From Anastrepha obliqua (taxonomy: Eukaryota > Arthropoda > Insecta > Diptera > Tephritidae): DNA of 64,000 nt. The position numbers and the translations under genes are program-made. Below are positions 6,111 to 32,189 of this stretch, piece after piece (position 1 is the first letter of the stretch; each line of letters begins with the position of its first letter). Location of the stretch: NCBI RefSeq assembly GCF_027943255.1, contig NC_072896.1, positions 121,179,879 through 121,243,878 on the forward strand, in the 5' to 3' direction. Under the pieces are notes generated by a model. The model was not told where the DNA came from. It searched no databases and worked only from the letters and a program-made list of their open reading frames with translations.

Positions 6111-6187
6111 CGATGACTTTTCACCCTGCTTGTCGAGCTTGGTGGCAAAAAGTGTAGAGAAGCCAGAGAAGTGTAGGTACGCATGCA

Positions 6188-6544
6188 AGTTAACGCCTCC
6201 TATACCACACACCACTAACCCAGGATGTAAACAGTTAAGCATAGATTAATAGCGCAAGCCACTTCCCAAAAAAATAAACAATAAATATAAGCACTTACCA
6301 TTAGCGAAAGAAGTGGACATCACAATAAAAATAAGCGCTTACCTTAGCGAAAATGTCAAACATGTCACATATCACGTATGGTCCGCTTTCAATAGAATTA
6401 AGACATACTAACCTAAGATTTAAGCTTCAGATTCTGTATAAATATTAAGATTAATAAAGTTTCGGATCAGTTTGTATCCGGTGTGCAACGAAGACTCACA
6501 ATGTGTTTTTTAAAAAGCTTTTGCTAGTTAAGCAAAAGATAATT
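6188..6544 (+). repeat. Errantivirus 5' LTR (357 bp)
   Basis: It matches the 3' LTR base for base in all shared parts but lacks two stretches of 35 and 39 bp, giving 357 instead of 431 bp. The 35-bp gap lies after CATTAGCGAAAG and is bounded by GAAAG on both sides in the longer LTR. The 39-bp gap lies after GTGGACATCAC. The missing 39 bp carry one of two copies of a U3 repeat (ATATCACGTATGGTCC...) found in the 3' LTR. Confidence 0.93.
6437..6473 (+). promoter_or_regulatory. LTR core promoter: TATA box and TCAGT initiator
   Basis: TATAAATA at 6437-6444 is followed about 30 bases later by TCAGTTT at 6467-6473, a match to the arthropod initiator TCAGTY. The predicted transcription start is at or near A6469. 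An AATAAA at 6453-6458 sits between them. The same block recurs in the 3' LTR. Spacing and motifs are seen directly; use as the start site is inferred from gypsy-type elements. Confidence 0.7.
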
Positions 6545-6561
6545 GGCGATCCTGCCAGGAG
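6544..6561 (+). other. Primer binding site, arginine-tRNA type
   Basis: TGGCGATCCTGCCAGGAG follows the 5' LTR, sharing its first T with the LTR end. It starts with TGG, the complement of the tRNA CCA end. From memory it is complementary to the 3' end of an insect tRNA-Arg (UCU-like) whose end reads CTCCTGGCAGGATCG-CCA. The tRNA identity should be checked against a tRNA set; the position and TGG start are clear. Confidence 0.75.
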
Positions 6562-7264
6562 CGATTTAAGTTCTGGTGGACCAAATAAAAGTTGTGTGCT
6601 ATAATAGCCTGTAAAAAGGCAGTGCACAATTTAAACAAATAAGTATCCCTAAATCGGAAAAGGGAGAAAAAAAAAAAAAAAAAAAAAAAAATTTTTAGAC
6701 TAAAAAAAGGAGAAAACTAAAAAGTATCCTAAGTCTAAAAAATAATAAAACAAAAAGAAAAAATTTAAAAAAGGAGAAAACCAAAAAGTATCCTAATAAA
6801 ACAAAAAGAAAAAATTTAAAAAAAAAGGAGAAAACCAAAAAGTATCCTAATAAAACAAAAAGAAAAAAAGGAGAAAATCAAAAAGTATCCTAGTAAACCA
6901 AAATATCAAGCAAGTCTACAAAATATAATAATTCTACAAGGAAACAAGCAAAGGAGGAAAAACGCACTCAATAGAGGAAAAATCACTGTATGCAAACATC
7001 TTTAGCAAGCAAACACCAAGTTGGACCTGAAGGAATCTTCCAGTAATGAGTAAGAAACTAAATAATTTTTAAGCATTAAAAGTTGTAAATTATAAATATA
7101 GCATATGGGCAATAGACCTAGTAGCTGAGGTTACGAGAAATTACACTATTGTGAAAAGTGTAAAGAAAACCACAAAAATTGTGTAAAAAATAAGGAAGTG
7201 ATTAAAAATTTTTCAAATTTTACCAAAAATAAAGCTGGAAGAGTTGAGAAGTAGATTTGCAGAT
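6562..7264 (+). other. Errantivirus 5' leader with A-rich tandem repeats
   Basis: About 700 bases of untranslated leader before the gag ATG. A poly-A run sits near 6667-6694. Four diverged copies of a ~50-60-bp unit follow (about 6704-6899), each with AAGGAGAAAA(C/T)(C/T)AAAAAGTATCCTA and an AAACAAAAAGAAAAA filler. Repeated leader motifs are known in gypsy-type elements, where some bind insulator proteins. I do not see the classical gypsy insulator motif clearly, so no function is assigned. Confidence 0.7.
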
Positions 7265-8386
7265 ATGTCTATAGTGAATAATAACAATAGCACGTCCAAT
7301 ATGGATGTTGTGTCGCGACTTATAGCTGCTAGCACCGCCTCGCTGCGTAGCGAGGTAGAACAAGTTAGACGTCAGTTGCAGGCTTTAAGTAATTCCGACA
7401 ATGTTGCTGAATATACTACAGAATCAATAGATTCAACAATCAATTGTGAGGAAAGTTTAGACGTCATAAAATCTCTTCCTGAATTTCGAGGAAAAATCAA
7501 CAATTATGTTAGCTGGCGCGAGGCTGCTAACAATTCAATGTCATTGTATACTAGGGGAAGCAAAAAATATTTTGCTGCCTTGACTATCTTGCGTAACAAA
7601 ATTACGCAGGACGCTAACAATATTTTAACGAACCACGGTACGGTTCTTAATTTCGATGCAATTCTGAGTAGGCTAGATTTTGCCTTCGCTGATAAGAGGC
7701 CGTGTCACATAATAGAACAGGAAATGAGTGTGCTTAGGCAAGGACCTGGTACCCTAATAGAGTTCTACAACGAGGTCAATAAAAAACTGACGTTATTAAT
7801 TAACAAAACGATAATGACGCACGGAACGAATTCCGCAATTACAAAGGAGCTTAATACCAAAAACAGGGAAACAGCTCTTCGAACTTTCATTACAGGTCTT
7901 AACCCTCCGCTGGACCAGATCCTCTTCACGTTGGCACCACGTGACTTACCAAATGCTCTTGCCAAGGCGCAGGAGCTCGATGCCAATCAAATGCGAGCAC
8001 AATTCGCATTGCATTTTTCAAGGAGTAATAATAATAGTAATAATAATATTACAATAAACAGAAACGCTCATCAGGGCGTTCGTAGGGGTGCGAATTTTCT
8101 GAACAATTTAAGGTATCCACCAAGGAATACCCCAGCAAATGAGGTCAAGCAAAATCGTCCAGAGCCAATGGACGTTGATCCATCATTACAGATCACAAAT
8201 ATTCCCAAACCGGTACAAACGTACCAGCAACAGGTGAGAGGCAATAGAACTAATTGGCAGACCAATTATAATTATCAGGCAAATGCTGTGCCAAAGAGGT
8301 CGAATAATAGTGCGCAAATAAGTACGCAACCTCAACAGAAGGTGCAAAGAATTAATAACATGGGAGAAAATCATTTTTTAGAGTAA
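7265..8386 (+). CDS. gag: Errantivirus Gag polyprotein
   Basis: The first in-frame ATG (7265, MSIVNNNN) opens a 373-aa ORF; the frame extends 7 codons upstream without an ATG. Residues about 65-250 are the globular capsid-like part, with LPEFRGKINNYVSWREAA and LDFAFADKRPCHIIEQEMSV, which are typical of gypsy/17.6-type Gag. The C-terminal third is Asn/Gln-rich and basic (NNNSNNNITINRN). There is no CCHC zinc knuckle, as expected for many Errantiviruses. Gag would assemble the particle and package RNA in the cytoplasm. The ORF ends with a slippery heptamer just before its stop, linking it to pol. Confidence 0.92.
   Translation: MSIVNNNNSTSNMDVVSRLIAASTASLRSEVEQVRRQLQALSNSDNVAEYTTESIDSTINCEESLDVIKSLPEFRGKINNYVSWREAANNSMSLYTRGSKKYFAALTILRNKITQDANNILTNHGTVLNFDAILSRLDFAFADKRPCHIIEQEMSVLRQGPGTLIEFYNEVNKKLTLLINKTIMTHGTNSAITKELNTKNRETALRTFITGLNPPLDQILFTLAPRDLPNALAKAQELDANQMRAQFALHFSRSNNNSNNNITINRNAHQGVRRGANFLNNLRYPPRNTPANEVKQNRPEPMDVDPSLQITNIPKPVQTYQQQVRGNRTNWQTNYNYQANAVPKRSNNSAQISTQPQQKVQRINNMGENHFLE
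8374..8380 (+). promoter_or_regulatory. -1 ribosomal frameshift site TTTTTTA
   Basis: In the gag frame the heptamer reads T TTT TTA, followed by GAG and the gag stop TAA (8384-8386). It fits the X-XXY-YYZ rule and is the same heptamer used by several retroviruses. The pol frame is -1 relative to gag and is open from 8356 on, so a slip here joins Gag to Pol. No stimulatory structure was computed. Confidence 0.8.
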
Positions 8387-11300
8387 GGTCTGATTTGCCC
8401 TACATTGTCAAGACGGATAGGAAGACGGGGCAAATCTTCAAAATCTTAATTGATACGGGAGCAACAAGCTCATATATACGGGCCGGGCTCTATGTAAACA
8501 AAAATGTTTTAGAAAATAAGAAGAGGGTAAGAACCATTCATGGTTCGACCATCATAAACTTTTTCCATAATATCAATTTATTTGATGCTCAGGAGCGATT
8601 TTACGAGATTGAAAATTTAGAAAGTGATCTCTTAATTGGAATCAATTTCTTGAGTAAAATCGAAGCCAAGATTGATATTCCAAATCGGGTGTTGATCTAT
8701 GGTAATAACAAAACAGAAAAAATTCATTTTCTTGATGATTTTGATATACCAAACCCCTCGGGACAAGAAGGTCCTGAAACGTCTGTCGAAAATATTATCA
8801 ATAAACCAAAAGGGAAAAATAATGAAAGAAATACCAAAAACGGTGTGAAGAAAATTAATCAGAAACTAGTAGGGAAAAAAGGTCAAAAGGGGCCTGACAA
8901 AAATTATACTAGAAACAAAAAAGATAATAAAAATTTGCAAAAAAATATATCGGAAAACCTAACTCCTAAAACTTTTGCTGAGGTAGATACCGCGAAAATA
9001 AAAAAATTTAAAAATCAAGATAAGAATGAAGATTCCCAAATTGGAAATTCATTGAATAATTTAAGGTCGGAGTCCTCAAAGATATCCTTTGAAGTAGATA
9101 GGAAAGGGGAGTCGATCGAAGGGTTGCAAAATAAGGTGATTGAGGAAATTTCAATAACACATAGTGATGTTAATTTAAATTTACCTTTTCGTACCGACGT
9201 AAAGGCGGAAATACGAACTTTTGAAGAAAGGCCAATTTGGTCAAAACAATACCCTTACCCAATGTCAGTGAATGATTTTGTTAATAATGAGGTTCAAAGC
9301 CTGTTGCAAAAGAATATAATTAGGGAAAGTAAAAGTCCATACAATTCTCCAGTATGGGTGGTTCCAAAGAAAGGAGTAAATGATGACGGAAGTCCTAAAT
9401 TGAGATTGGTCATCGATTTCAAAAAAATTAATGAAAAAACCACATCTGATAGGTACCCAATGCCTAATCCAGAGGTTATACTTTCAAATTTGGGAAAGTC
9501 TAATTATTTTTCTACAATAGATTTGGAGTCTGGATTTTACCAGATATTAATGAAAGAAAATGATATAGAGAAAACGGCATTTTCGGTAAATAACGGGAAG
9601 TACGAATTCCTACGAATGCCGTTCGGATTGAAAAATGCACCAAGTATTTTTCAACGGGCTATGGATAATGTATTAAGAGAATATATTGGAAAGTTTTGTC
9701 ACGTTTATGTCGACGATGTTATAATTTTTTCAAAAAATTTGGAAGACCATAAAAAACATTTGAGTTTGGTAATTAATATATTAAGGGAGGCAAATATGAA
9801 AATATCCTCTGAAAAATCTAAGTTCTACCAAAGAGAGGTGGAATTTTTGGGATATATAGTGGCAAAGAATATAATCAAAACGGACCCAAGAAAGGTTGAA
9901 GCCATACAGAATTATCCTATACCAAAGACATTGCGTCAATTGCGGGGATTTTTGGGGCTGACAGGCTATTATAGAAAATTTATACACAATTACGCGGTTG
10001 TGGCAAAGCCATTAACTAAGCATTTGCAGGGGGAAAACGGAAAAATTTCCCAGTATTTGTCAAAGAAAAAGATAGTTAGTCTAGATCAAGACGGAGTGGC
10101 TGCTTGTGACAAATTGAAGAATTTACTGGCTCAACAAGTTGAATTGACACAACCTGATTATAACAAAAAATTTGTTTTAACAACCGATGCATCAAATGTA
10201 GCTTTGGGTGCAGTATTGTCACAAGAGGGGAAACCTATTGTCTTTATATCAAAAACATTAAATTCTACGGAGTTTAATTATGCTACAAATGAGAAAGAGT
10301 TGTTCGCAATAGTCTGGGCTTTGAAAGCATTGCGTAATTACCTTTACGGTGTTAGTGATCTGGAAATACACATTGATCATCAACCTTTGTCATTTGCGAT
10401 TTCGGAAAGAAATCCGAATATTAAGATTAAGAGATGGAGATCATTTATTGAAGAATTTTCTCCAAAAATTATTTACAAGCCAGGTGCAACCAATGTCGTT
10501 GCTGATGCATTGTCGAGACAAATGCTTAATAATTTGACAAATTCCAAAGAACATAGTGAGTCCAGTGATTCGTTAGCGGACACACAACATTCTGCTGAAA
10601 GCAGTAATGAATATCAGATTCATGAAACAAAAAAGCCATTAAATCATTTTAAGCAACAAATTTTGATAGATAACGGGGCGAAAATAACCGTGTTAGAGAC
10701 AATTTCTCATTTTAATAATAAACGATTTTTGATCGAATACGACATACCGGAAAATATTGTTGGAGTTTTAAAAGAATATATTAACCCAAAGTTGGTTACG
10801 GGAATATATTGCTCACCTGAGGTGCTTTACGAAATAAAGAACGTATTGAGGGAGGCATTTCCAACTGTAAAATTTTTTCATACGAAATTGTTCCCAAACG
10901 ATATTACTAATAGAGAGGATCAGGGAGCGATTATTGAACAAACTCACAATAGGGCACATAGAAATTATAGGGAAAATTTGGCCCAAATTAGGCAACAATA
11001 TTATTGGCCATTGATGATAAAACAGTTCAAGCAATATGTAAAAAATTGTAACATATGCAACAGTAATAAATATGAAAGGCACCCAAAACTTATTCCGATA
11101 GGAGAGGCACCTATTCCGGAAAGAGAGGGAGAACAACTCCATATTGATATTTTTTTCGCGCAAAAATTAAAATTTTTAACTTGTATAGATTCTTATTCTA
11201 AATATTTAATTGTAAAATATATTGGGGATAAGCTTAATTTGGAGGAAAAAATTTTGGAACTTCTGCAAACATTTCCAGATGTTAAAAGTATAGTTATGGA

Positions 11301-11808
11301 TAATGAACCAGGTTTAAGTACGATACAATTCAGGTCTTTAATGGAAAGACTCAACATACAAATCTATTATTGCACACCACGTCATAGCACGAGTAATGGT
11401 CAAATAGAAAGGGTTCATTCCACACTTATAGAAATATCTCGATGTTTAAAAGAGGAACACAGTTTAGTTAGTGATTTCGAATCAATTATGAGGGCGGTGC
11501 AGCAGTATAATAAAACTATACATTCAGTAACAGGTAAACAACCTTGTAATATTTTGTTTAATAAAGAGAAGCATGAGAATATAAGGGATATATTAAAAAA
11601 TAATCAGGAAAAAATGTTAGAATACCACAACAAGAAAAGGCTTCAAAAAAATTACCATAGGGGTGAAATTATATATGAAAAAGTATATGGGGAACGAAAT
11701 AAATTAAAACCCAAATATAAAAAGCAGATAGTAGTAGAAGATTTAGGAAATAAAGTTAAAATACAAAACAGAAACAGAATAATTCACAAAGATAACATTA
11801 AAGTTTAA
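8380..11808 (+). CDS. pol: Errantivirus Pol polyprotein (PR-RT-RNase H-IN)
   Basis: About 1,140 aa in the -1 frame; the first ATG is not near the start, so it is probably made as Gag-Pol. Domains in order: aspartic protease with IDTGATSSYI (about 8449); reverse transcriptase with VIDFKKINEKT and YVDDVIIFS (about 9706); RNase H with TTDASNVALGAVLSQ (about 10180) and HIDHQPL; integrase with an HHCC zinc domain (H-x3-H...C-x2-C, about 10940-11070), then D in LHIDIFF, D in VMDNEPG and E in NGQIERVHS. Catalytic residues of all four enzymes are present and there is no internal stop or frameshift. It copies the RNA genome and inserts the DNA. Confidence 0.94.
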   Translation, partial: RVRSDLPYIVKTDRKTGQIFKILIDTGATSSYIRAGLYVNKNVLENKKRVRTIHGSTIINFFHNINLFDAQERFYEIENLESDLLIGINFLSKIEAKIDIPNRVLIYGNNKTEKIHFLDDFDIPNPSGQEGPETSVENIINKPKGKNNERNTKNGVKKINQKLVGKKGQKGPDKNYTRNKKDNKNLQKNISENLTPKTFAEVDTAKIKKFKNQDKNEDSQIGNSLNNLRSESSKISFEVDRKGESIEGLQNKVIEEISITHSDVNLNLPFRTDVKAEIRTFEERPIWSKQYPYPMSVNDFVNNEVQSLLQKNIIRESKSPYNSPVWVVPKKGVNDDGSPKLRLVIDFKKINEKTTSDRYPMPNPEVILSNLGKSNYFSTIDLESGFYQILMKENDIEKTAFSVNNGKYEFLRMPFGLKNAPSIFQRAMDNVLREYIGKFCHVYVDDVIIFSKNLEDHKKHLSLVINILREANMKISSEKSKFYQREVEFLGYIVAKNIIKTDPRKVEAIQNYPIPKTLRQLRGFLGLTGYYRKFIHNYAVVAKPLTKHLQGENGKISQYLSKKKIVSLDQDGVAACDKLKNLLAQQVELTQPDYNKKFVLTTDASNVALGAVLSQEGKPIVFISKTLNSTEFNYATNEKELFAIVWALKALRNYLYGVSDLEIHIDHQPLSFAISERNPNIKIKRWRSFIEEFSPKIIYKPGATNVVADALSRQMLNNLTNSKEHSESSDSLADTQHSAESSNEYQIHETKKPLNHFKQQILIDNGAKITVLETISHFNNKRFLIEYDIPENIVGVLKEYINPKLVTGIYCSPEVLYEIKNVLREAFPTVKFFHTKLFPNDITNREDQGAIIEQTHNRAHRNYRENLAQIRQQYYWPLMIKQFKQYVKNCNICNSNKYERHPKLIPIGEAPIPEREGEQLHIDIFFAQKLKFLTCIDSYSKYLIVKYIGDKLNLEEKILELLQTFPDVKSIVMDNEPGLSTIQFRSLMERLNIQIYYCTPRHSTSNGQIERVHSTLIEISRCLKEEHSLVSDFESIMRAVQQYNKTIHSVTGKQPCNILFNKEKHENIRDILKNNQEKMLEYHNKKRLQKNYHRGEIIYEKVYGERNKLKPKYKKQIVVEDLGNKVKIQNRNRIIHKDNIKV

Positions 11809-11812
11809 TTGC

Positions 11813-11824
11813 ATTATTTTTAGG
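11813..11824 (+). promoter_or_regulatory. Candidate splice acceptor for env mRNA
   Basis: The 20-base gap between the pol stop and the env ATG holds a pyrimidine-rich run ending in TTTTTAG/G (AG at 11822-11823), five bases before ATG 11829. Errantivirus env is made from a spliced subgenomic RNA, so an acceptor here is expected. The donor, expected in the leader or early gag, was not identified. Confidence 0.5.
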
Positions 11825-11828
11825 AAAC

Positions 11829-13325
11829 ATGGCGAAATTAGTGCCACTTATATTGATATTTTCATATATCAATATCATTACAACAGATATAATTGATTAC
11901 ACAAGAGAAAATTATATACTTGTAGAAGAAGAAGATGCAGGAATTTTTGAATATTATGGATCATTATACCATTTAACAAATCTATCGTTATTTGAAAATG
12001 TTGTAAACAAATACAAAAGCAATGAAGAAATAATATTAATTGATAATTCAAGTATGGATTATGAAATACAGATGATAGAAACATTACTAAGACAATTGAA
12101 GGTTGATAACAAAAGATCGAAAAGAGGTATTAATGAATTAGGTACTGTTTGGAAATGGATTTCGGGTACGCCTGACCATGATGATTTTATGAAAATAACG
12201 AATAAAGTAAATGATCTAATAGAAAATAATAATAAGCAGTTTACAACAAATTCACAAATATTCAAAACAATCACAGAATTAAAGCAAATCCTTAAGCAAT
12301 TACAGGGCAGTTCTAATGAAAAAACTGTTTTAAGGCAAAGAAATAAATTAATAATTACAGAGCTTGAAAATATAGTGGAAACAATTACCTTGTCAAAAGT
12401 AGGAATATTAAATCCTTTAATTTTAGATATGTCAGAAATAAAAGAAATAATAAGCAATGAGCAAGTAAATGTAACAATATCAGATCTTATAGATGTTTCG
12501 GAATTTAAAATTGTACAAAAGAGTAATTTAATAGTTGTTTACATTAAGTATCCAAAAGTAAAAAATGTTTGTAAATTGTATAAAGCAATAGCTGTAGCGC
12601 AAAATGATGGAAAATTGTTGATTGAAAATGAAGTAATAAAATGTGGAGATAAATTTTATTCAGTCAAATTTTGTAAAAAGGAATTAAATAATGCTTTTTG
12701 TATGATAAAAGGAAATAACACATGTTTGTCCGATATGTTAAATAATAAACATGCCAACTGCACAAAAATAAATGAAGCAAATGAATCAATAAATATTGTA
12801 AAAGATGGTGCTATAATAGCATCAGGAAAGCATAAAATTAATAATCACACTATAGAAGGAGTTTATTTGATAACTTTTCAAGATGATGTTATAATTGACA
12901 ACAGAAAATATGAAAATCCTACAGGAAAAATTTTAGGATATTTAAGGGAAGGAAAATTAAAATCTTTTTTTGTAAATAAATACATTGAAACAAAAAATAT
13001 TGATTTAAAATTAAACAATGTTAATATACTCACACCATTAAAGCAAGAAATAAAACGAAATCCTGTTTGGTGGACATTTACCACTTTAATTGTAATAATA
13101 TTATCTGCATATTTTGTCTTTAAATTTATCATATATATTAATCTAAAAATTAAATTAAAAAATGCAAAAGAAAAAGAAGAATTATTATTGCAATTATCAG
13201 ACAGAATTAATCACTTAACAGCTTTATATTCGAAGACGGGACGCTTCGATTTAGAAGAGGGGGAGTTAACGCCTCCTATACCACACACCACTAACCCAGG
13301 ATGTAAACAGTTAAGCATAGATTAA
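11829..13325 (+). CDS. env: Errantivirus envelope-like glycoprotein
   Basis: A 498-aa ORF with a hydrophobic N-terminus (residues about 1-19, signal-peptide-like), a basic furin-type site (RSKR, residues 96-99) followed by a G-rich segment of the kind that opens the fusion subunit in Errantivirus Env, several N-x-S/T sites and paired cysteines in the middle, and a transmembrane helix at about 414-438 before a short Lys-rich tail. The length fits the family (about 450-550 aa). The last ~20 codons run through the polypurine tract into the 3' LTR, with the stop at 13323-13325. It is uninterrupted. Membrane fusion or particle spread is a family property and is not shown here. Confidence 0.9.
   Translation: MAKLVPLILIFSYINIITTDIIDYTRENYILVEEEDAGIFEYYGSLYHLTNLSLFENVVNKYKSNEEIILIDNSSMDYEIQMIETLLRQLKVDNKRSKRGINELGTVWKWISGTPDHDDFMKITNKVNDLIENNNKQFTTNSQIFKTITELKQILKQLQGSSNEKTVLRQRNKLIITELENIVETITLSKVGILNPLILDMSEIKEIISNEQVNVTISDLIDVSEFKIVQKSNLIVVYIKYPKVKNVCKLYKAIAVAQNDGKLLIENEVIKCGDKFYSVKFCKKELNNAFCMIKGNNTCLSDMLNNKHANCTKINEANESINIVKDGAIIASGKHKINNHTIEGVYLITFQDDVIIDNRKYENPTGKILGYLREGKLKSFFVNKYIETKNIDLKLNNVNILTPLKQEIKRNPVWWTFTTLIVIILSAYFVFKFIIYINLKIKLKNAKEKEELLLQLSDRINHLTALYSKTGRFDLEEGELTPPIPHTTNPGCKQLSID
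13253..13263 (+). other. Polypurine tract
   Basis: AGAAGAGGGGG lies directly before the 3' LTR start AGTTAAC. It is the expected primer for plus-strand DNA synthesis. It is also read as env codons (about LEEGE), so it is under double use. Confidence 0.8.
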
Positions 13326-13694
13326 TAGCGCAAGCCACTTCCCAAAAAAATAAACAATAAATATAAGCACTTACCATTAGCGAAAGTGTCAAACATGTCA
13401 TTGACACTTTGCTAATGAAAGAAGTGGACATCACATATCACGTATGGTCCGCTTTCAATAGAATTAAGAAAACAATAAAAATAAGCGCTTACCTTAGCGA
13501 AAATGTCAAACATGTCACATATCACGTATGGTCCGCTTTCAATAGAATTAAGACATACTAACCTAAGATTTAAGCTTCAGATTCTGTATAAATATTAAGA
13601 TTAATAAAGTTTCGGATCAGTTTGTATCCGGTGTGCAACGAAGACTCACAATGTGTTTTTTAAAAAGCTTTTGCTAGTTAAGCAAAAGATAATT
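13264..13694 (+). repeat. Errantivirus 3' LTR (431 bp)
   Basis: It has the same ends as the 5' LTR and is identical in all shared sequence, but 74 bp longer. It contains two copies of a ~39-bp U3 segment (CACATATCACGTATGGTCCG...AATTAAGA at about 13431 and 13517) and an inverted GTCAAACATGTCATTGAC motif. The final coding part of env lies in its first 62 bases. Confidence 0.93.
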
Positions 13695-13698
13695 TGCA

Positions 13699-16796: not shown

Positions 16797-17020
16797 TGTT
16801 CAAAGTATATTCTTCAAATTTAATTTAATTTATTTTATTATACTGTAGAGTATATAATTTTGTATGTTGTCAATATCGCTGCAGCGGCACATCCGTTCAC
16901 GCAAAAGTCAAAGAAAAAAGAGAGAGAAAATGAGGGTGCGCAAAATATAGAAAAAAGCAAATGTCAAATTGGGTTGCCATATTAGCATTTTATTGACCAG
17001 CTTTGCATTCAGTCGTAACA
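16797..17020 (-). repeat. BEL/Pao 3' LTR (sense orientation)
   Basis: It shares with the other LTR the run from TGTTCAAAGTATATTCTTC through GCAGCGGCACATCCGTTCAC to GTCGTAACA. Differences include a 5-base TTAAT-like deletion near the start, GGG against AACGGGG near the end, ATAG against ATGG and two point changes near the end. This is more divergence than in the Errantivirus, so the insertion is older. Confidence 0.9.
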
Positions 17021-17082
17021 TTCCGCCCACCTCGTTCAGGTCCTGCGACGAAATAAGGGACCAGCCGCCCACCGTAAAGACA

Positions 17083-18760
17083 TCAGGTGTCCTCCATAGG
17101 CAGCAGTACTAACTTTGATATGGCTCGCTTGATAATGGAAGTTGGCGTACGAATGGTTGCCACTCTGACAACGTCGTCAGTTCCTGGATGCACGTCCTTT
17201 ATACGACCCAACGTCCACTGAGTGGGAGGAGCGCGCTCGTCGCGTATTAAGACCAAGTCTCCGGGTGGTAGATTGGTGCTAGTTTGATGCCATTTGCGTC
17301 TTACTTGTAGTTCTCGCAAGTACTCAAAACTCCATCGGGCCCAGAAATGTTGCTGTATTTGTTGAAGCTGTTTCCACCGTTTGAGTCGATTTGGATTAAC
17401 ATAAAGTAAACTTGGTTCGGGAGTAGCGACTAACGGACCGCCCACCAAAAAATGGCCAGGGGTCAACGCAGCTAAGTCCGTTGCGTCTTCTGTTAGTGCC
17501 GAGATCGGCCTCGAGTTAAGCACTGCTTCCACTTGCTTTAAAAGAGTATAAAATTCTTCAAATGTTAGCTTCGCGCTGCCAATTATGCGCTTTAAATGAT
17601 GTTTCATGCTTTTTATACCCGCCTCCCAGATGCCTCCGAAATTTGGAGATCCAGGTGGTATGAAATGCCATGTTACTCCCCAAGTTGGCACGTACCGTGC
17701 TGCCGCCTCAAGCTGTTGTCGAAAGCTGGCCAGATCTGCTTTTAGTTCCGCATCGGCTCCTACGAACGTTGTAGCACAGTCGCTGTATATGTCCGAACTG
17801 TATCCACGGTGTGCAAAGAATCTTCGAAGGGCTGCAAGAAACGCTGCAGTGCTCAAGTCGCTAACCAGCTCCAGATGAATTGCTCGGGTGCTGAAGCATA
17901 CGAATAGGGCAACATAGCCCTTGTAACTGTGATGGCCTCTGCCTTTCGCGCTGCGAATTTGGTACGGTCCACCGTAATCGAGACCACAATGACTAAAAGG
18001 TTTTGCTGCGTTGCAGCGATGCGTGGGAAGACTTCCCATGATTTGGGTCGAGGGAACATCTCGGTGACGAAAACATTTTATACAACGATGAATGAATCGT
18101 CTGATTGACGAACGAGCGTCAATAATCCAGTATCTTCTTCTTATAAAGTTGAGAGTCGATTGAACGCCGCCATGCAACGTATAGTCATGCGCTTGACTGA
18201 TCAGTAAGGTGCACAGAGGATCCTGTTTCGGTAACAAGCATGGAAACTGTTCATAGAAAGGCATGTTTGCGTTCTTCAACCGCCCGTTTAAACGCAAAAT
18301 ACCATCGTCATCCAAAACTGGGTTCAATTTGAGGAGCTTGCTCTTCTGGCAAATCGGTTTGCTAGAACGAAGACAGGAGATATCATTAGCGAAATGAATC
18401 TGCTGAACATACCTTATCCAGAATTGCAAGGCCGCGGTTCTTTCAGTCACAGTACACCATAGAGTTGTTTCATGGGGTCGCTTCATCAGTGCGGCAAGGA
18501 AATGCTGACACCAAGATGTGACTGCCAATAGCTTGTTGAGATTCGAGTATTTTTGAAGCAATGTCGTGAGCATGGTTGGTTTGGACTCTTCCGGAATCGT
18601 CACTAGGGAGAGAACTAATTCTTCGTCTGGATCTGTCGAACCGTTGTGTTGTTCAGGCCAGGTGCTTGAGTAACAATTTAGCCACGGAGGTCCCCGCCAC
18701 CACATCGACAACCCTGCGAGCTGAGACGGGAAAATACCCCGGGATGCAATGTCGGCTGGG
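17083..18760 (-). pseudogene. pol: BEL/Pao integrase region
   Basis: Third frame of the same Pol. It opens within the conserved NPADIASRG...WWRGPPWL link and runs for about 560 aa. The integrase zinc domain is H-x3-H...C-x2-C (AHDYTLHGG...CIKCFRH, about 18195-18060). The catalytic triad is D in GLDYGGPY (about 17980), D in YSDCATTF (about 17775) and E in FGGIWEAGIKS (about 17630). The C-terminal part DLVLIRDERAPPTQWTLGRI is the usual BEL C-terminal domain. The domain itself is uninterrupted, but upstream lesions silence it. Confidence 0.9.
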
Positions 18761-20288
18761 TTCGTTGTAGTATATTAGGTACATACTTCCAAGCGTTGAT
18801 TGGTGTTAACTCTTGGATTTGAGTTACACGATTGCTGATGTATTGCTTGTGTTTACCAGGATTTAATCGAATCCAGCTGAGCGTGGTTTTGGAATCCGAC
18901 CAACAGTAAAGTTGAATCGCTGGGAGTTGCAGTGTTGACAGCACTTTAGCGGCTACTTTCGCTGCGAGTAGAGCAGCATTTAGCTCCAAACACGGGATGG
19001 TTATCTTCTTCAGTGGGGCCACCTTAGTCTTAGCGGTTAGAATTGATATTTTTACATCATTACCTGAAGTTTCCACACGAAGGTACGCGACAGCAGCATA
19101 TGCCACAGTAGAAGCATCAGAAAATACATGCAGTTGGTAACTGGATACACTGGGCTCAGCTCTAACCCACCTGGGCACTTTGAGTTCTCTGATTTGAGGT
19201 ATTTCGTCTCTAAAGCGCCGCCATTCTTGTTGAAGGGGATCAGGAATGGGATCGTCCCAATCGACACCCGATAACCACAGCTGCTGACAAATAGCTTTAC
19301 CTTTAACTACGACAGGTGCTAGTAGATCCGGCGGGTCATAGATTTTGGCCACATCGGACAATTGCTGCCTCTTTGTGATGTCTCCAATGATAGGTATTAC
19401 GTTTGTCTTGTAACCGATGCTGTCAGTGTCACACAGCCAATAAATTCCTAGAGCGTTTGTTTCGCTATCAAGATTTAAGTTGCGGGACAGCCCAAGGTTT
19501 TCGTCTTCAGTGTACAGATGGCGCATAAATTCAGTAGAGTTGGACATCCACTTCCGAAGGTTGAATCCGCCGCGCTGTAAAAGCTGTTGTAGCTGGCGTT
19601 GAATATTCAGAGCGTCTTCCACGGTTGCGGCACCATGCAGGCAATCATCCATGTAAAACGACTCCGTTAATATTTTTGATGCTGCCGGAAAATCATCCGT
19701 AGCAAGCGTGTGCAGAACCTTAATGGTGAGATAGGGCGAGCAATTTAAGCCGTAAGTTACAGTGAGCAACCGGTAAATGGCTGGCTTGCCCTGCTCGTCA
19801 CGCCAGACAATCCGCTGCATATCAGCATCAGGTCTGCTGACTAAAATCTGGCGATAACATTTTTCAATGTCCGCTATGAACGCAACCCGATGCATCCGCC
19901 ATTTTAAAATGATGGAGCTTAAGTCGCTCTGCAGCTTGGGTCCAACATGAAGACAGTCGTTTAGAGAAACGCCACCTTTGTATTTCCTTGAAGCATTAAA
20001 TACAGTGCGAAGCTTCGTCGTAGTGCTATCTTTTTTGTACACACCATGATGAGGAATGTAACATACTGGATGCGCAAAATCGTCAGATGGGACTGGCTCC
20101 ATATGACCAAGATTTCTGTACTCAGCCATAAACGCTGAATACATTTCATTCGGTGTGGCATTGTTGGTATGCAAATAGTCGAAGGGCATCTGATTTAGAA
20201 TCGGATAGAGCAGCAAGGTCACAGGACTCCTTAAAGGGATATTGAACGTGATAGCGCCCGGAAAGATCGCGACACACTGTACGCTCAA
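18678..20288 (-). pseudogene. pol: BEL/Pao reverse transcriptase and RNase H region
   Basis: This continues Gag-Pro after a one-base frameshift near 20180 (the upstream frame ends ...SDALRLFAYQQC; this frame picks up at FDYLHTNNATPNEMYSAF). It contains LRTVFNASRKYKGGVSLNDCL, FIADIEKCYRQI, the catalytic YMDDCLHGA (about 19660-19635) and RNase H VFSDASTVAYAAVAYL (about 19130) and CWSDSKTTLSWI. A second one-base frameshift near 18770 cuts the frame after AWKYVPN; the correct continuation, with NPADIASRGI and then WWRGPPWL, is in the next frame. Confidence 0.88.
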
Positions 20289-22086
20289 ATAGCTTCTCGC
20301 AATAAATTTCGTCTTGCGTCATTGAGGATGAGCCTTCCACGTCCTCACATTCATTGAACTTGCACAGTTGCTGAACCAAATTGTTGAGTTCAGTAGTGGC
20401 TGCGCCGATGATGACATCAATAGACCCTGGTTCGAAGAAGTTTGGATCGGCTAATGGCAGATCGAGAAATTCCGAATATGGTTTTGGGTCGACACGATTT
20501 AACGGCATGAGATGTCCCAAGCGGGGCAGGACCAAAGCCGAACAATCGATGTTGAACTCGCGTTCTGTAAGTGAATGTAATGAGAAATGAACTACGCCAT
20601 TAGACTCACCTACACGGCAGCCGCCTATACCGGTGATGGGTACTTGAAGACGGGCTCTGCGAAGGTGTAGTTGTTGAACTGCAAACTCGCTGATGAAAGA
20701 TGCCTGTGATCCATTGTCCAGAAGCGCCCGCAGTTGGAGTTCATGCCCTGTGGGAGAGCGTATTCCAATAACCGCAGTTGCAAGCAGAACAGATGTGAGA
20801 TCATTTGTGTTTGGTGTCTGTATTAAATAATCGGAACGCGTATGATGAGTAGCAACCTTGTTGGGTAGCGTAGAAAGACTGTCATGCAACAGTGTATGAT
20901 GTTTTTGCATGCACCTTTGGCATGTATAAGTAGATGAGCACTCGTCAATAGTGTGGCCTGGTTTTAGACAATTTTTGCAAAGTTTTGCCTTATGAACCAG
21001 ATCTAATTTTGCTGAAGATGTTTTCTTGCGGAAATCCGGGCAGCACATGAGCGTATGCTTACCCGAACAGCATGAGCATCGGCCAAAGCTCGTTTGATGA
21101 CTTCGCACAGCTTGATTGTGTGGTGAATTTTGTGAAAAATCTTTCGATTTATTCTTGGCAGCTGCCCCCACTGCTTCCAATCCAAGAATGCGTTTTTCTA
21201 GAAACGAGACTAAATCGCTGTAAGCAGGCACCTCACTTGGACTACCAAGACTCATCTCCCATTCTTTAACTGTGGCAGAATCGAGCTTTTCGGTGATTAG
21301 AAAAATTAGCCAATCATTCCACTTAGCTGTTGGACGGCCAAGCTGTTGTAACGCACGCATTGACTCAGTCACGGTGTCCAACAGTTTTCGCAGACTCGTT
21401 TCGGATTCTGTGGGCATTGCCGCCAACTTGACAATGTTTCGCAAGTGTGACTTCACAAGTCGTCGTGTGTTGTCATACCTTTGTTGGAGTAGGTCCCACG
21501 CGATTATAAAATTAGCGTCTATAACCGAAAAACTCCGGAGCATAACCTCCGGCTCACCCTGTACGCTGCTTTTGAGATAGTACATTCATTGCACGTTGGA
21601 GAGTGTCGTATCTTTGATCACGCACGTGGTGAACATGTCCTTAAAGCTTAGCCACTTTTCAAAAGACCCATCGAACTTCGGCAACTCGATTTTTGGAAGA
21701 ATTGTGAGTGGTGCACTTGCTGTAACTGAGCGAAACGTGGCAGATTGATTAAAACTGTCATTGCCGATATCTGACAGCTCGTCGATACCATCGTTGAGTT
21801 CACCCATTGCTTCGCAATATGCTCCTTCAATAGCTGCAAAGTGCTCATCGGACAGCGCGTCACGCACCGCTGCTGCATTAGCATCAGTGACCGCCAGCGC
21901 ACCAAGATCGTCGCGAATAGCGTGGTAGCGCGACCAATACTCCGACAGCAGACTGCGCCTGGCTCCGAGATAGCCCTTTGTTTTTTTGGACTTTGCCATT
22001 TTACGCGTGTTTGCACCAAAGTTTAAGATGAGCTTGGACAAAGACTCTTCCTTTCCAAGCACCATGTCTGATTGTGCGACGAACAC
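20146..22086 (-). pseudogene. gag-pro: BEL/Pao Gag and protease region, interrupted by a stop
   Basis: The frame runs from 22086 to 20146 with one in-frame TGA at 21588-21586 (after DTTLSNVQ); both parts are in the same frame, so this is a premature stop in an otherwise open Gag. The second part contains the zinc knuckles CKNCLKPGHTIDEC (about 20980-20935) and CQRCMQKHH, then the aspartic protease LLDNGSQASFISEFAV (about 20735-20690) and the linker towards RT. Reasonable starts are the Met of MVLGKEESLSKL or MAKSKKTKGYLG; the latter resembles BEL Gag N-termini. Gag forms particles and the protease cleaves the polyprotein. Confidence 0.85.
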
Positions 22087-22206
22087 GCGGGTCTTCCGTA
22101 TTTGAGGTTAAGTTCCTTCGAAGTGTAGAACGTTGCTGGACTGCTGCAGCCTTACTTTTATTATTTCCAATGTGCAGGGAAAGGTTCCCCGCAAGGGATG
22201 CCAAAA

Positions 22207-22439
22207 TGTTCAAAGTATATTCTTCAAATTTAATTTTATTTAATTTATTTTATTATACTGTAGAGTATATAATTTTGTATGTTGTCAATATCGCTGCAGC
22301 GGCACATCCGTTCACGCAAAAGTCAAAGAAAAAAGAGAGAGAAAATGAGGGTGCGCAAAATATGGGAAAAAGCAAATGTCAAATTAACGGGGTTGCCATA
22401 TTAGCATTTTATTGAACAGCTTTGCATTAAGTCGTAACA
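22207..22439 (-). repeat. BEL/Pao 5' LTR (sense orientation) with primer site
   Basis: A 233-bp LTR. Just inside it, in sense direction after AACA-TTT, lies TGGCATCCCTTGCGGGG (complement of 22203 down to 22187), the expected place and TGG start of a tRNA primer site. I cannot name the tRNA with confidence. Confidence 0.85.
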
Positions 22440-24239: not shown

Positions 24240-24330
24240 GTTGTGGGCTACAGTGAAAATAAAATAAAATAAAATAAGAAAAATAAAATAAAATGAACTA
24301 AAAAAAAATAAAATAAGAACAAAAAGGTTG
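24240..24330. repeat. AAAAT-rich simple repeat
   Basis: Runs of AAAATAAAATAAAAT, like the tail at 26020-26046 of the LINE that starts just downstream. It could be the tail of an earlier copy or a target preference for A-rich DNA. Confidence 0.5.
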
Positions 24331-24394
24331 CAGGAAGCGCACATTAGGCTGTAAAGATCAGCTTATTATAGACACTGTAATCACAGGTGTAGCT

Positions 24395-24820
24395 ATGAGA
24401 AGAAGGCGGAATTTAAGCGTTGCGTTTATTGACTACAAAAAAGCTTTTGATTCAATGCCGCATTACCTATTAGAAATATTAAGAATATACAAAATCAATG
24501 CTGCCACTGTTGCCCTCTTGGGTCGCGTAATGAGCAAGTGGAATACAAAACTGGTTCTAAATGGAACTGTTTCAAAACAGATTTCAATCAAACGTGGTAT
24601 ATTCCAAGGAGATGCCTTAAACCCCCTATGGTTCTGTATGGGCCTCAATCCACTTAGTAGGCTTCTCACGCTTAAACAAAATGGCTTTATAATCAAAACG
24701 GAAGTAGGAGAGCACACGTTCAACCATCTTTTGTTTGTTGATGACTTGAAACTTTACGCGAACAAAAAGCATAAGCTTTACGAGCTGATAGATGCCACTA
24801 AAGCTTTTAGCGATGAGTAA
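24395..24820 (+). pseudogene. RT domain part of the R2/R4-like LINE
   Basis: 141 aa from the first ATG, although the true frame starts upstream at about 24336. It holds RT motifs A (AFIDYKKAFDSMP), B (RGIFQGDALNPLWF) and C (FVDDLKLYA, equivalent to the YxDD box). It is cut off by ATGAGTA repeated three times in tandem (24814-24834), after which the protein resumes out of frame with NIIIDNLHSSESYKNLGF, with a short piece missing. Confidence 0.85.
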
Positions 24821-24959
24821 TGAGTAATGAGTAGACCAAAATATTATTATAGACAACTTGCATAGCAGTGAATCTTATAAAAATTTAGGATTTCTGTAAC
24901 TTAAAGGAATCAGCCACACGCTAGTAAAGCAAAGTCTCATTAACAAATTTGAGGCACCT

Positions 24960-26032
24960 TTGAAAGCTGTATTAAAAACTAGTCTGAACAGTGGAAATAA
25001 ATGCAAAGCAATTAATACCTGGGCCATACCTCTTTTGACATACTCGTTTGGAGTAATAAAATGGTCTCAGACAGACATCCTTCGGATTGAAACGCTGATA
25101 CGCAGCACTTTTACAAAGTTCCAAAGCCATTACCCTCAAAGCACTGTGGAAAGAATATCCCTTCCTCGAAACGTTGGTGGGAGAGGAATCATCAATATAG
25201 CGCGTCTACACTTCTCGCAAACTTTAAAGCTACGTACATATTTTCTAAGCAGCGAGTCCTATATATTTAAAGCTATCGCTAGGGCAGATAATGGCTTTAC
25301 CCCGCTAAGTCTGATGGAGCAGAATTTCCCAGTACCTGAGGCGGTTAAATCCCCAGCAGAAATGATCGCAGCATGGAAGGCAAAAACAATGATCTCGAAA
25401 TGGAATGGATAGACGCACAATCATCCAATTTATGGTTGAAAAGAGGAAAGCTATTTTCTGAAACAGAAGGTTTCGCAATCGCTATCCAAGACCGAGTTAT
25501 CCCAACAAGAAATTTCCGAAGGTCGATACATGGCGAGGCAATAAAAGATAGATGCCGAAGGTGCGGCGTTTACGGTGAAACAATCGACCATTTAATTGCT
25601 GGTTGTAGCGTACTTGCCCCCCGTGAATATGTCATGAGACATAACAATATAGCAAAGATCCTCCACCAGCAACTTGCGATAAAACACGGTCTCTTACAAG
25701 CAGAAGTCTTGTATTTTAAATATGAACCAAAGGCAATATTGGAAAATACAAATTTTAAACTATACTGGGACAAATTTATTTCCACAGATCAAACCGCAGC
25801 TGCCATCAAACCTGACATCATCTTGTTCCACAAGATAAATAAAACAATCGAAGTAATCGATATAGCGGTGCCCCTTAATCGCCACATCCAAAGCACATAT
25901 TCCACTGAAGTATCGAAGTGTGCAGCTTTTGCCATAGAATTGAAACGGATGTACACAGTGAGGGAAGTTAATATAATACCAATAATTATATATAATAAAA
26001 AATCAAATAAAAATAATAAAAATTACAAATAA
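24960..26032 (+). pseudogene. Thumb, Cys/His motif and endonuclease part of the R2/R4-like LINE
   Basis: Two overlapping frames: 24960-25412 (thumb region, INTWAIPLLTYSFGVIKW, LPRNVGGRGIINIARLH) and 25373-26032. The second has C-x2-C-x7-H-x4-C (CRRCGVYGETIDHLIAGC, about 25555-25608) and KPDIILFHKINKTIEVIDIA (about 25809), which fits the PD...E/D core of the restriction-like endonuclease in R2-type elements. One frameshift near 25385 separates the two. The endonuclease would nick the target for reverse transcription. Confidence 0.82.
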
Positions 26033-26243
26033 AATAAAATAAAATATTAAAACAGTTCTCGACAGGTTCTCGCTCTGAGCAGACGTATTTGCTTACTCTC
26101 GATTTTCTGTTGTGACTATTCTTTCGGTGTGTCAAACGCGCACGTGTTCCTCTTCAAAACGCTTTACGGATTAACTTAACTTCTATCAAAGTATATATAT
26201 ACAAGTATATCAATACAAGTGTTATTGTGTAGTGATATTAACA

Positions 26244-27701
26244 ATGGCCCCCGGGCCACCAAATCTCGGGGACAACAGGTTTGCGTTGCTTGCCTCGGGT
26301 CCCCAGTCAAAAAGGAAAAAACCAACATATACCCCAATAAACTTTCCTGATTTGCCGCAGTTGAAAAAAGAAAACCCTAAATTTCTCACAATTCGTGCTG
26401 CTGATGCAAATAAACCGATTTCCAAATACTCGTGTTTTGCTGTGCATAAAGCGCTAGAATCCATAAGTAAGGAAATAATCTCAATATCTGAGCTACGTGA
26501 CGGTAACCTATTGTTTTTGGTTAAAAACTCCCAAATAGCACAAAAATTCATTTCCACTAAAAAACTAATTGGTGTATGTGATATTGTAGTGAACTACCAT
26601 GAAAACCTGAACAGCTCAAAAGGCACAATTTTCGCACCATGCTTAAACAATGTGGACGAAAAAGAGATTATTGAAAATATGAGCGCACAAGGTGTCACAG
26701 ACGTTTATAAATTTTCAAAACTGGAAAATAATGTATCACAATATACAGGAACCGTACTTCTTACATTCAACCTCTTCAAGCTCCCAGAAAAAGTCGAAGT
26801 ATCGTGGCGTATTGCAAAAGTCAAACCTTATTACCCAAATCCAATGAGGTGTAAAACCTGTCAGCTTTTAGGGCACACAGCTAAACGCTGCAACAATGCA
26901 CCCTCCTGTCAATCATGCAATTTCCCCCCACACCCACCATCATGTTCACGTATCTACTGTGCAAATTGTGCAGGCGATCATCCATCCTCTTCTAAATCAT
27001 GCCCAAAATATATGCAATCTAAAGAAATATTGAAAATCAAATGCCAAAACAAATGCTCAATGCGCGAAGCACTTAAACTCTACAAGGAACAGACACCGAC
27101 CACACTCAGCGCCTCATTTGCTGCTGTTGTAAGCGAGTCCCAAAATCTGAGCAAGATCGAACAAAGCAAAACGAAACCCCCTGCCGCTTTAGCACCTAGC
27201 CCATCAAGCAAATCACCGAGCACAGCTTCGCTCAATGCTCACTCCGACATCTTAATACAACCGAATTCAACTTCATCCAACACCACAACAGAAAATAACA
27301 AGAACCCGCAAATAAGCAACTCTCAATCGTCTATTGATTCACTCAGTATTCCTTCTGGTACTTCATTCCAAATAAACTCAGATTTAAGCAATCTTGTCTC
27401 AGAAAACAATAACGTCCACGTAAGCAAAACAATGCCGTCGTTTGTACCAAATGAACTCAATTTCAACTCTCACCCTCAATTTTCACCACATACACCACTT
27501 CTCTTAGACTCCACTCTCTCCCATATTCTCACACAAGCTCAAAGTATACAAACTGCATACGTTCCACAATCACACACATCCAACTCTTCAGCAATCAGTC
27601 AAATACTAAGCCAATCTCAATTCGACGCTAATAACTTCCACGATCAGACGATGTCAGACAACGATCAGACAATGTCACACAGCGATCCTCAATATATGTA
27701 A
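26244..27701 (+). CDS. I-clade LINE ORF1 (gag-like RNA-binding protein)
   Basis: ATG at 26244 (MAPGPPNLGDNRFALLASGP) gives 485 aa; the ORF is open 4 codons upstream without ATG. Residues about 50-190 form the RNA-recognition-like part (FLTIRAADANKPISKYSCFAVHKAL). Three cysteine motifs follow at about 205-255: CKTCQLLGHTAKRC, CQSCNFPPHPPSC and CANCAGDHPSSSKSC. The C-terminal 200 residues are Ser/Asn/Thr-rich and probably disordered. It is uninterrupted. In the I-element family ORF1 binds the transcript and carries it to the nucleus. Confidence 0.88.
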   Translation: MAPGPPNLGDNRFALLASGPQSKRKKPTYTPINFPDLPQLKKENPKFLTIRAADANKPISKYSCFAVHKALESISKEIISISELRDGNLLFLVKNSQIAQKFISTKKLIGVCDIVVNYHENLNSSKGTIFAPCLNNVDEKEIIENMSAQGVTDVYKFSKLENNVSQYTGTVLLTFNLFKLPEKVEVSWRIAKVKPYYPNPMRCKTCQLLGHTAKRCNNAPSCQSCNFPPHPPSCSRIYCANCAGDHPSSSKSCPKYMQSKEILKIKCQNKCSMREALKLYKEQTPTTLSASFAAVVSESQNLSKIEQSKTKPPAALAPSPSSKSPSTASLNAHSDILIQPNSTSSNTTTENNKNPQISNSQSSIDSLSIPSGTSFQINSDLSNLVSENNNVHVSKTMPSFVPNELNFNSHPQFSPHTPLLLDSTLSHILTQAQSIQTAYVPQSHTSNSSAISQILSQSQFDANNFHDQTMSDNDQTMSHSDPQYM

Positions 27702-27735
27702 TCATTTTAATCAATTTAACTACAAAGCATTCTCA

Positions 27736-30700: not shown

Positions 30701-30819
30701 ACTTACTGCCATTTTCGTCTGTCTATACAGCAGAAGCCGTCGCGATATTGAAAGCAATTGACTCTGCACTTAGCTCTTCATCAAAAACCATAATTTGCAC
30801 TGACAGTAAACAATTCTAA
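27736..30819 (+). pseudogene. I-clade LINE ORF2: endonuclease, RT and first half of RNase H
   Basis: ATG 27736, 34 bases after ORF1. The AP endonuclease has LQWNLKGFYNN, ALQETHLA, IVGDFNAWSP and GSDHYPI. RT has SLDFEKAFDRVG, GIPQGSPLSVILF and CYADDVLIFTK (about 29740). RNase H begins with IFTDGSKSED, AEAVAI and CTDSK (about 30620-30808) and then hits TAA at 30817-30819. The remaining RNase H lies in another frame downstream, so a single 1-base indel around 30805-30815 breaks an otherwise full-length 1.2-kaa protein. Endonuclease and RT catalytic motifs are intact. Confidence 0.9.
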
Positions 30820-31406
30820 ACATAAACAATAAAAACCACATCATATCGTGTATCCGTGACAAGTTAATTGCAACCCATAACAAAATTAAAATAATGTGGG
30901 TACCAGGGCATAAAGGTATCGCAGGAAATGAACTAGCAGATCTGCGTGCCAAGCTCGCCGGAAAAGAACCTTTAATCTCTTTTCAGTTCCTCGACAAGAG
31001 GGACTTGCATAATTTAATTTCTTCACAACAGCGTACAAAACAAATGATTGAATGGAAATCCATCCGACACCACTACACGCAAATTAATGGTGATAGAAAT
31101 GCACCCAAGTACCCATCATCATGCCGATGCAACGATATCAAAGCTTTCGTTCGACTACGCTTAGGGCATACCATAGCCACACATTCGTATAGGCTATCTG
31201 GTATCAGCCCCCCATCATGTCAGTATTGTCCTGCGTCAACACTCTCCATCACACACCTGCTCAACGAATGTCCACAGTTCACGTCAATCAGAAGCAACAT
31301 ATTCAACTGCGACAACGCCATCGATCTCTTAAAAACCACTACACCCGAAAACATTGAGAAAATTGCCAAATATTTAACCCTAACGGATCTTCGTAAAGTC
31401 ATTTAA
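30810..31406 (+). pseudogene. I-clade LINE ORF2: rest of RNase H and C-terminus (frameshifted)
   Basis: The frame is open from about 30810; the first ATG is 30894. It gives KIMWVPGHKGIAGNELADLR, the final RNase H motif, then RLRLGHTIATHSY and the terminal zinc motif C-x2-C-x8-H-x4-C (CQYCPASTLSITHLLNEC). The stop is at 31404-31406. Read with the preceding frame it completes ORF2. Confidence 0.88.
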
Positions 31407-31995: not shown

Positions 31996-32189
31996 ATTCT
32001 CTTCTACTATTCTCTTATTTAGAAAGAAAAGGAAAGATGAAAAAGTTAATATCATCAAAATCTATGATTGGTTGCTTAAACCTAAACCGCCTTAAAGATT
32101 GTATGAAATGGAATAAGAATTATTTTAAAATCATCACAGGAAATCTAAGAGGGCATTGTAAATAGATTGACTCATCATCTTACTTTTTC

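What the first reader, a model, noticed from the sequence alone, without database searches (positions are those of the whole stretch)
6188..13694. Structurally complete Errantivirus with open gag, pol and env
LTRs, primer site, three open genes with catalytic residues in place, polypurine tract and a perfect 4-bp TGCA duplication are all seen. The LTRs show no substitutions where they overlap. In a window otherwise full of wrecks, this one may be recently mobile and worth naming as a family member.
Basis: partly seen in the sequence, partly recalled or inferred. Interest (0 to 1): 0.75.

Follow-up and report, generated by a model that had tools for sequence, protein, structure and literature searches.

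The report
Complete, recently inserted fly endogenous retrovirus
This is an apparently whole insect endogenous retrovirus of the gypsy (Errantivirus) type that landed in what is probably a fly chromosome not long ago; it is a new relative of a known kind, with one oddity, that its two end repeats agree letter for letter except for two short pieces missing from one of them.

Summary
At 6188-13694 lies a structurally complete Ty3/gypsy provirus: LTRs of 357 and 431 bp without substitutions where shared, a primer site, open gag, pol and env, a polypurine tract and a perfect TGCA duplication. The RT, RNase H and integrase active-site residues are invariant in 11 aligned Pol proteins. Gag has one in-frame TTTTTTA slip site, in its 28-nt overlap with pol. 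Env matches Pfam Gypsy (3e-60). LTR ends (AGT...ATT) and a palindromic target fit Errantivirus. A tephritid host is plausible: the nearest named Gag is from Ceratitis capitata (77%); an unnamed one is 97%. Correction: the 5' LTR lacks 35 and 39 bp of U3 that the 3' LTR has, each between short direct repeats, one covering most of a strong hairpin. I read this as loss from the 5' LTR, perhaps during plus-strand strong-stop synthesis of this same insertion; later deletion, a mixed particle or assembly error remain possible. A four-copy leader repeat recalls fly insulators, but Su(Hw) matches were no better than in shuffles. Copy number, polymorphism and activity were not tested: the genome search did not complete. 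An ordinary new member of a known kind with a testable LTR asymmetry.

The parts
6184..6187 (.). target site duplication TGCA, left copy
   Evidence: palindromic 4-mer inside a 13-base alternating purine/pyrimidine run of the empty site
6188..6544 (+). 5' LTR, 357 bp, short form (lacks 35 + 39 bp of U3); starts AGT, ends ATT
6437..6471 (+). core promoter: TATA box from 6437, AATAAA 6453, initiator TCAGT 6467; probable start of R
   Evidence: pattern matches; function inferred
6544..6561 (+). primer binding site, 18 nt, overlapping the LTR by one T; from recall fits tRNA-Arg(ACG), not tested
   Evidence: tRNA identity recalled; literature string search gave nothing relevant
6673..6897 (+). leader array: four head-to-tail copies of an A-rich unit (spacing 64, 54, 43), each with AAAGTATCC
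   Evidence: role unknown, Su(Hw) test negative
7046..7049 (+). putative short first env exon (ATGA) before a GTAAGA donor at 7050
   Evidence: prediction, no transcript
7265..8386 (+). gag, 373 aa from first ATG; capsid-like fold predicted; only two cysteines, so no CCHC zinc knuckle
8374..8380 (+). -1 frameshift heptamer TTTTTTA, the only in-frame one in gag
8359..11808 (+). pol in the -1 frame: protease, reverse transcriptase, RNase H, integrase; Lys/Asn-rich protease-RT linker
11809..11823 (+). putative env splice acceptor ending TTATTTTTAG, between pol stop and env ATG
   Evidence: prediction
11829..13325 (+). env, 498 aa, F-type (Pfam Gypsy), furin-type site RSKR before GINELG, membrane helix near the end; last 62 nt lie in the 3' LTR
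   Evidence: the membrane helix is read from the sequence
13253..13263 (+). polypurine tract AGAAGAGGGGG, also codes env
13264..13694 (+). 3' LTR, 431 bp, long form
13387..13421 (+). 35 bp absent from the 5' LTR; covers most of a 17-pair hairpin (13375-13417); GAAAG direct repeat at its ends
   Evidence: (z -6.1, 0 of 200 shuffles as stable)
13433..13471 (+). 39 bp absent from the 5' LTR; ACA direct repeat at its ends; 37 of the 39 bases lie in a 39-bp repeat (13431-13469) identical to 13515-13553
13695..13698 (.). target site duplication TGCA, right copy

Best explanation
It is a structurally complete, young provirus of an Errantivirus (insect endogenous retrovirus, Ty3/gypsy, Metaviridae), probably of a fly and plausibly a tephritid. 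Shown by sequence: LTRs, primer site, three open genes, polypurine tract, target duplication. Inferred: RNA starts at the U3 TATA/initiator; Gag-Pol is made by a -1 slip at TTTTTTA; Env is made from a spliced RNA (donor 7049/7050, acceptor 11823/11824, frames compatible), cut at RSKR and used for fusion; a tRNA primes reverse transcription; integrase joined the ends to a palindromic TGCA. The long U3 of the 3' LTR is the older form; the 5' LTR lost 35 and 39 bp between short direct repeats. The single most likely cause (0.35-0.4, no more) is a slip while plus-strand strong-stop DNA, which becomes the 5' LTR, was copied across the hairpin during this very insertion. The provirus then has a short promoter of its own but would pass on the long U3, since the U3 of its RNA comes from the 3' LTR. 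The confidence below is for the identity and completeness of the provirus, not for the cause of the LTR gaps.
For: Anatomy. RT, RNase H and integrase active-site residues invariant in 11 aligned Pol proteins. One in-frame slip heptamer in gag, in the overlap. Env: Pfam Gypsy 3.3e-60; R105 and R108 of the RxxR site and 5 of the 6 cysteines between it and the membrane helix are invariant in 8 Env rows, query included; the model matches baculovirus F and other viral glycoproteins, best E 5e-10, 21 of 254 matches at E 0.001 or less. Gag: capsid structures are the top fold matches. LTR ends AGT/AnT and palindromic targets are given as errantivirus traits in PMC5408687 (passages). Long form older: the extra pieces of the 3' LTR, less the inverted insert, are consecutive parts of the downstream U3 repeat in the right order, which two gains would have to copy by coincidence. 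0 substitutions beside two deletions speaks against slow decay (assumed ratios).
Against: No transcript or empty site was seen, and no second copy in the window; the genome could not be searched. Integrase-core and protease Pfam scores are below the curated cut-offs. Only 2 of 10 aligned relatives reach the protease DTGA motif. The frameshift hairpin is no better than chance (z -1.2, 27 of 200 shuffles as stable). Structure models are of low to middling confidence (mean pLDDT 57 and 67); the Env matches have TM-scores (query) of about 0.2-0.36 for the 21 best and the Gag search has no match at E 0.001 or less. The strong-stop origin of the LTR gaps is inference; one copy cannot prove it.
Confidence: 0.88

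Rival explanations
1. The two U3 gaps arose by ordinary deletion in the chromosome after insertion; the element is young but not just arrived.
For: Both gaps have short direct repeats at their ends (GAAAG, ACA), usual for replication slippage, and the hairpin would promote loss in any replication.
Against: Two deletions and 0 substitutions: if deletions are 0.1, 0.15, 0.25 or 0.5 times as frequent as substitutions, the first two changes are both deletions with P 0.008, 0.017, 0.04 or 0.11 (ratios assumed). Both fell in the same LTR, 11 bp apart.
Confidence: 0.25
2. A particle held two RNAs, one short-U3 and one long-U3, and strong-stop DNA from one jumped to the other; or two proviruses recombined or underwent gene conversion. 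LTR length variants exist in the family.
For: Senti et al. (PMC12992720, passages) report rover with several LTR-length variants in D. melanogaster; possible gene conversion was predicted in 25% of LTR pairs in plants (PMC7251063, passages).
Against: The two LTRs have no substitution between them in 357 bases, so the short variant would have to be newly split from the long one. No second copy was seen, but only the window was searched.
Confidence: 0.2
3. The short 5' LTR is an assembly error: a hairpin and repeats collapsed.
For: The missing pieces are most of a hairpin and a repeat copy, which assemblers can drop. The assembly method is unknown.
Against: Two separate gaps with clean ends leave an 11-bp piece that occurs once in the 3' LTR in place; a simple collapse would remove it too.
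Confidence: 0.15
4. The element is whole but functionally dead through missense changes, or silenced. (Not exclusive of the others.)
For: Intact frames are not proof of function; other elements in the window are broken.
Against: The compared active-site positions are kept, young LTRs.
Confidence: 0.2

Closest known systems
Drosophila gypsy / ZAM / Tirant errantiviruses (iERVs)
   Same: [quoted passage not shown] PMC8872304: abstract and four sections)
   Different: Repeat unit does not carry the TERM motif and its Su(Hw) matches are no better than in shuffles; no Drosophila reference protein was available for the tree
Ceratitis capitata Gag P0132 (named in UniRef as retrovirus-related Gag polyprotein from transposon gypsy)
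   Same: 77% identity over 95% of Gag; Gag ends in the same way
   Different: Only Gag seen; whether it is yoyo or another medfly element was not established
Unnamed Gag P0131 (source tag lgn)
   Same: 97% over 92%: same family
   Different: Species not shown; 1252-bp contig, Gag only
yoyo of C. capitata
   Different: Not compared: no sequence on hand; the two papers found hold the word once each (listing seen, not read for it)

Membership tests
Metaviridae | two LTRs, 18-nt primer site, about ten A/G before the 3' LTR, gag and pol with protease, RT, RNase H, integrase (PMC7879559, whole text) | tested here: met
   primer site by position and length, its tRNA not tested
Errantivirus | env gene downstream of integrase, F type | tested here: met
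   Pfam Gypsy 3.3e-60; Env relatives; baculovirus F among the fold matches
Errantivirus | LTR ends AGT/AnT in place of TG/CA | tested here: met
   AGT...ATT; the review says n is usually A or C, here T
Errantivirus | 4-bp palindromic target | tested here: met
   TGCA both sides; palindromic 4-mers are 6.3% of the window. One site only; the reviewed preferences are TATA, CGCG, ATAT
Errantivirus | Pol inside the monophyletic errantivirus clade | tested here: inconclusive
   Tree of 42 Pol rows puts it in a supported clade of 16 (100/100), but nearly all rows are unnamed and no Drosophila reference is among them
Errantivirus | env made from spliced RNA | not testable with these tools
   Sites predicted only
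Errantivirus | infectivity between cells | not testable with these tools
   no expression or cell data
gypsy-type Su(Hw) insulator | Su(Hw) sites in the 5' leader better than chance | tested here: not met
   best leader match equalled or beaten by 142, 62 and 160 of 200 shuffles for three consensus forms; the count of copies was not tested apart, since the copies are tandem duplicates
ZAM/Tirant/accord leader repeats | TERM motif (ATCCATCGCTGAT) in the repeats | tested here: not met
   at most 9 of 13 positions in the leader, with one position left free
yoyo | sequence identity to yoyo | not tested
   no yoyo sequence available

The most novel reading that the evidence does not exclude
This insertion preserves a reverse-transcription slip in the act: its 5' LTR was born shorter than its 3' LTR when plus-strand strong-stop DNA skipped a hairpin and a repeat in U3. 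Each such provirus would be driven by a one-off promoter that its own offspring do not inherit, so a family whose U3 hairpin yields unequal proviruses would have an unheritable source of expression diversity.
Probability: 0.35. Interest if true: 0.45.

Novelty: new member of a known kind. Interest (0 to 1): 0.3.

Why it matters
Intact, env-bearing errantiviruses outside Drosophila are useful for asking how soma-to-germline infection and piRNA defence work in other flies. The unequal LTRs give a simple, countable test (how many copies have unequal U3 at birth) of a step of reverse transcription that normally leaves two equal LTRs and so no trace. They also warn that counting indels as ageing could misdate such copies.

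Tried and rejected
Su(Hw) insulator in the leader array: four copies hold TAGGATACTTTT (minus strand; 11 of 12 to the in vitro consensus quoted in PMC2374998, passages), in the leader where gypsy has its insulator, but a dinucleotide shuffle of the leader does as well in 62 of 200 cases, and the four copies are not independent. Not shown; kept as an untested idea.

TERM/RpL22 motif (PMC8872304, abstract and sections 4, 12, 17, 26 read): not found in the leader.

Structured frameshift stimulator: a hairpin from 8392 on is not better than shuffles.

Viral contigs (IMG/VR): 7 pattern matches, none a relative of Pol. Solved structures: Ty3 and other reverse transcriptases for pol (210 sequences, best 60 shown); only chance-level rows for env (2) and gag (1). 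Rfam: 0 matches in the window. tRNA genes: 0 in the window. Primer strings in papers: 1 irrelevant hit. A bacterial promoter and terminator scan of the LTR says nothing about a fly.

Papers: searches (80 papers hold at least two of the four terms; 20 listed; 42 papers hold at least four of five terms; 15 listed) were searched for tephritid errantiviruses; for that question I opened only PMC13172572 (passages), which studied Bactrocera tryoni among other insects. I make no claim that this element is unpublished.

Tree: the clade is supported but the neighbour of the query (P0012) is weakly placed, 83/46.

Full report
What is there. The element spans 6188-13694. Repeat search and BLAST give a 5' LTR of 357 bp (6188-6544) and a 3' LTR of 431 bp (13264-13694). 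It is flanked by TGCA at 6184-6187 and 13695-13698. The empty site holds GTACGCATGCACG around the target, 13 bases of alternating purine and pyrimidine; runs of 13 or more hold 514 of 64000 window positions, and palindromic 4-mers are 4044 of 63997. LTRs start AGT and end ATT. A review of fly errantiviruses gives AGT/AnT ends and palindromic targets as their marks (PMC5408687, passages).

Genes. Frames open from stop to stop are gag 7202-8386, pol 8359-11808 (the -1 frame), env 11802-13325. Gag has 373 aa from its first ATG at 7265, only two cysteines, no Pfam match, and a predicted helical core whose best structural matches are capsids of dARC1, PNMA2, PEG10, Arc and Ty3, none with E at or below 0.001. 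Pol has reverse transcriptase, RNase H and the integrase zinc domain above Pfam cut-offs; the integrase core and protease score below theirs. In an alignment of 11 Pol proteins these residues are invariant: RT D388, D452, D453; RNase H D610, E647, D673; integrase H863, H867, C897, C900, D930, D981, E1017 (which residues are catalytic or bind zinc is from general knowledge). The protease DTGA motif is present in the query and in the two of ten relatives that reach it (P0024, P0028). Env has 498 aa from its first ATG at 11829 and matches Pfam Gypsy at 3.3e-60 over residues 29-456. Its low-confidence model (mean pLDDT 57) finds other viral glycoproteins, with baculovirus F proteins at ranks 4 and 5, at E about 1e-9 and TM-scores near 0.3.

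Expression signals. In the LTR a TATA box at 6437 precedes a TCAGT initiator at 6467, with AATAAA at 6453. Gag has exactly one X XXY YYZ heptamer in its own frame, TTTTTTA at 8374-8380, and it lies in the 28-nt overlap with pol. The hairpin after it is not special (z -1.2, 27 of 200 shuffles as stable). A donor ATGA|GTAAGA at 7049/7050 and an acceptor ending TTATTTTTAG at 11823/11824, just after the pol stop, are in compatible frames; of three donor-like GTRAG sites between 6545 and 8386 this is the only one before the gag ATG. Senti et al. [quoted passage not shown] Frame agreement alone has a chance of one in three, so this is a prediction only. Env runs on through the polypurine tract and 62 nt into the LTR. 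The ends of two distant relatives read GGVNV (P0072) and GGRVNV (P0010), which could be coded by a similar tract and LTR start in another frame (inference, no DNA seen).

Relatives and host. For Env and Pol only the candidates sharing most words were scored. Env: 7 hits of 7997 candidates, 30-45% identical. Pol: 1381 hits of 7987, 120 listed, at most 67% identical (P0012, over 78%). Gag: 148 hits of 6480, 120 listed; 97% over 92% (P0131, unnamed), 77% over 95% (P0132, Ceratitis capitata), 88% over 60% (P0133, unnamed). In a tree of 42 Pol rows (the query from residue 266 on and 41 of the 120 listed hits) it falls in a supported clade of 16, apart from two C. capitata Pol proteins of another lineage. 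No Drosophila reference element or yoyo was on hand, so its place in a named subclade is open.

The LTR mismatch. The shared 357 bases have no substitution; the 95% upper bound is 0.84%, or 0.26-0.38 million years with recalled fly rates of 1.1-1.6e-8 per site per year. Gene conversion can fake youth (PMC7251063, on plants, passages). The 3' LTR has 35 bp (13387-13421) and 39 bp (13433-13471) that the 5' LTR lacks, with GAAAG and ACA direct repeats at the ends. The first covers most of a 17-pair hairpin at 13375-13417, z -6.1, 0 of 200 shuffles as stable. U3 of the 3' LTR is an imperfect tandem repeat, whose first unit bears an insert with the inverted arm. The two extra pieces, less that arm, are consecutive parts of the second unit. 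Gaining both in the right places is unlikely, so the long form is taken as the older and the 5' LTR as having lost them. In reverse transcription (textbook knowledge) the 5' LTR is copied from plus-strand strong-stop DNA and the 3' LTR from the minus strand, so a slip while strong-stop DNA is made gives exactly this: short 5', long 3', no substitutions. Later deletion, a mixed particle or recombination, and assembly error are the rivals. I put the birth slip at 0.35-0.4, ahead of each rival but below one half.

Leader array. Four head-to-tail A-rich units (spacing 64, 54, 43) lie at 6673-6897. Repeated leaders are common in fly elements: 19 of 49 tested, and the repeated leaders of gypsy, ZAM and Idefix have been tied to insulator function (PMC8872304, sections read). 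Su(Hw) and TERM tests here were negative.

What could not be done. The genome search did not complete (14 identical requests and one other), so copy number, other LTR pairs, tRNA identity and host were not tested. Activity is therefore unproven. The verdict is a sound observation, an ordinary kind of element, and one feature worth counting across copies.

Noticed in passing
16797-22439: Broken BEL/Pao element on the minus strand: Pao peptidase, RT and integrase pieces in overlapping frames, flanked by a 94% direct repeat of 233 columns (16797-17020, 22207-22439), probably its LTRs.
   Followed up: partly
24317-31406: Remains of a non-LTR retrotransposon on the plus strand: endonuclease-RT frame of 1069 aa (27610-30819), an RNase H piece after it, and open frames before it, two of which were scanned without a Pfam match.
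   Followed up: partly
46024-47374: Array of about 225 copies of the hexamer AGATGA, 97% matches, which leaves five of the six frames open for 460-476 codons.
   Followed up: no
1973-2471: Minisatellite of about 4.6 copies of a 107-bp unit.
   Followed up: no
57714-58313: Fragment of a transposase (Pfam Transposase_1), of mariner type by recall.
   Followed up: no
32187-32328 and 42008-42159: Inverted repeat pair, 84% over 153 columns, 9.7 kb apart.
   Followed up: no
8741-9150 (approx.): The protease-RT linker of pol is long and Lys/Asn-rich; of the aligned relatives that cover it P0024 also has a long one of other sequence, the others shorter ones.
   Followed up: partly
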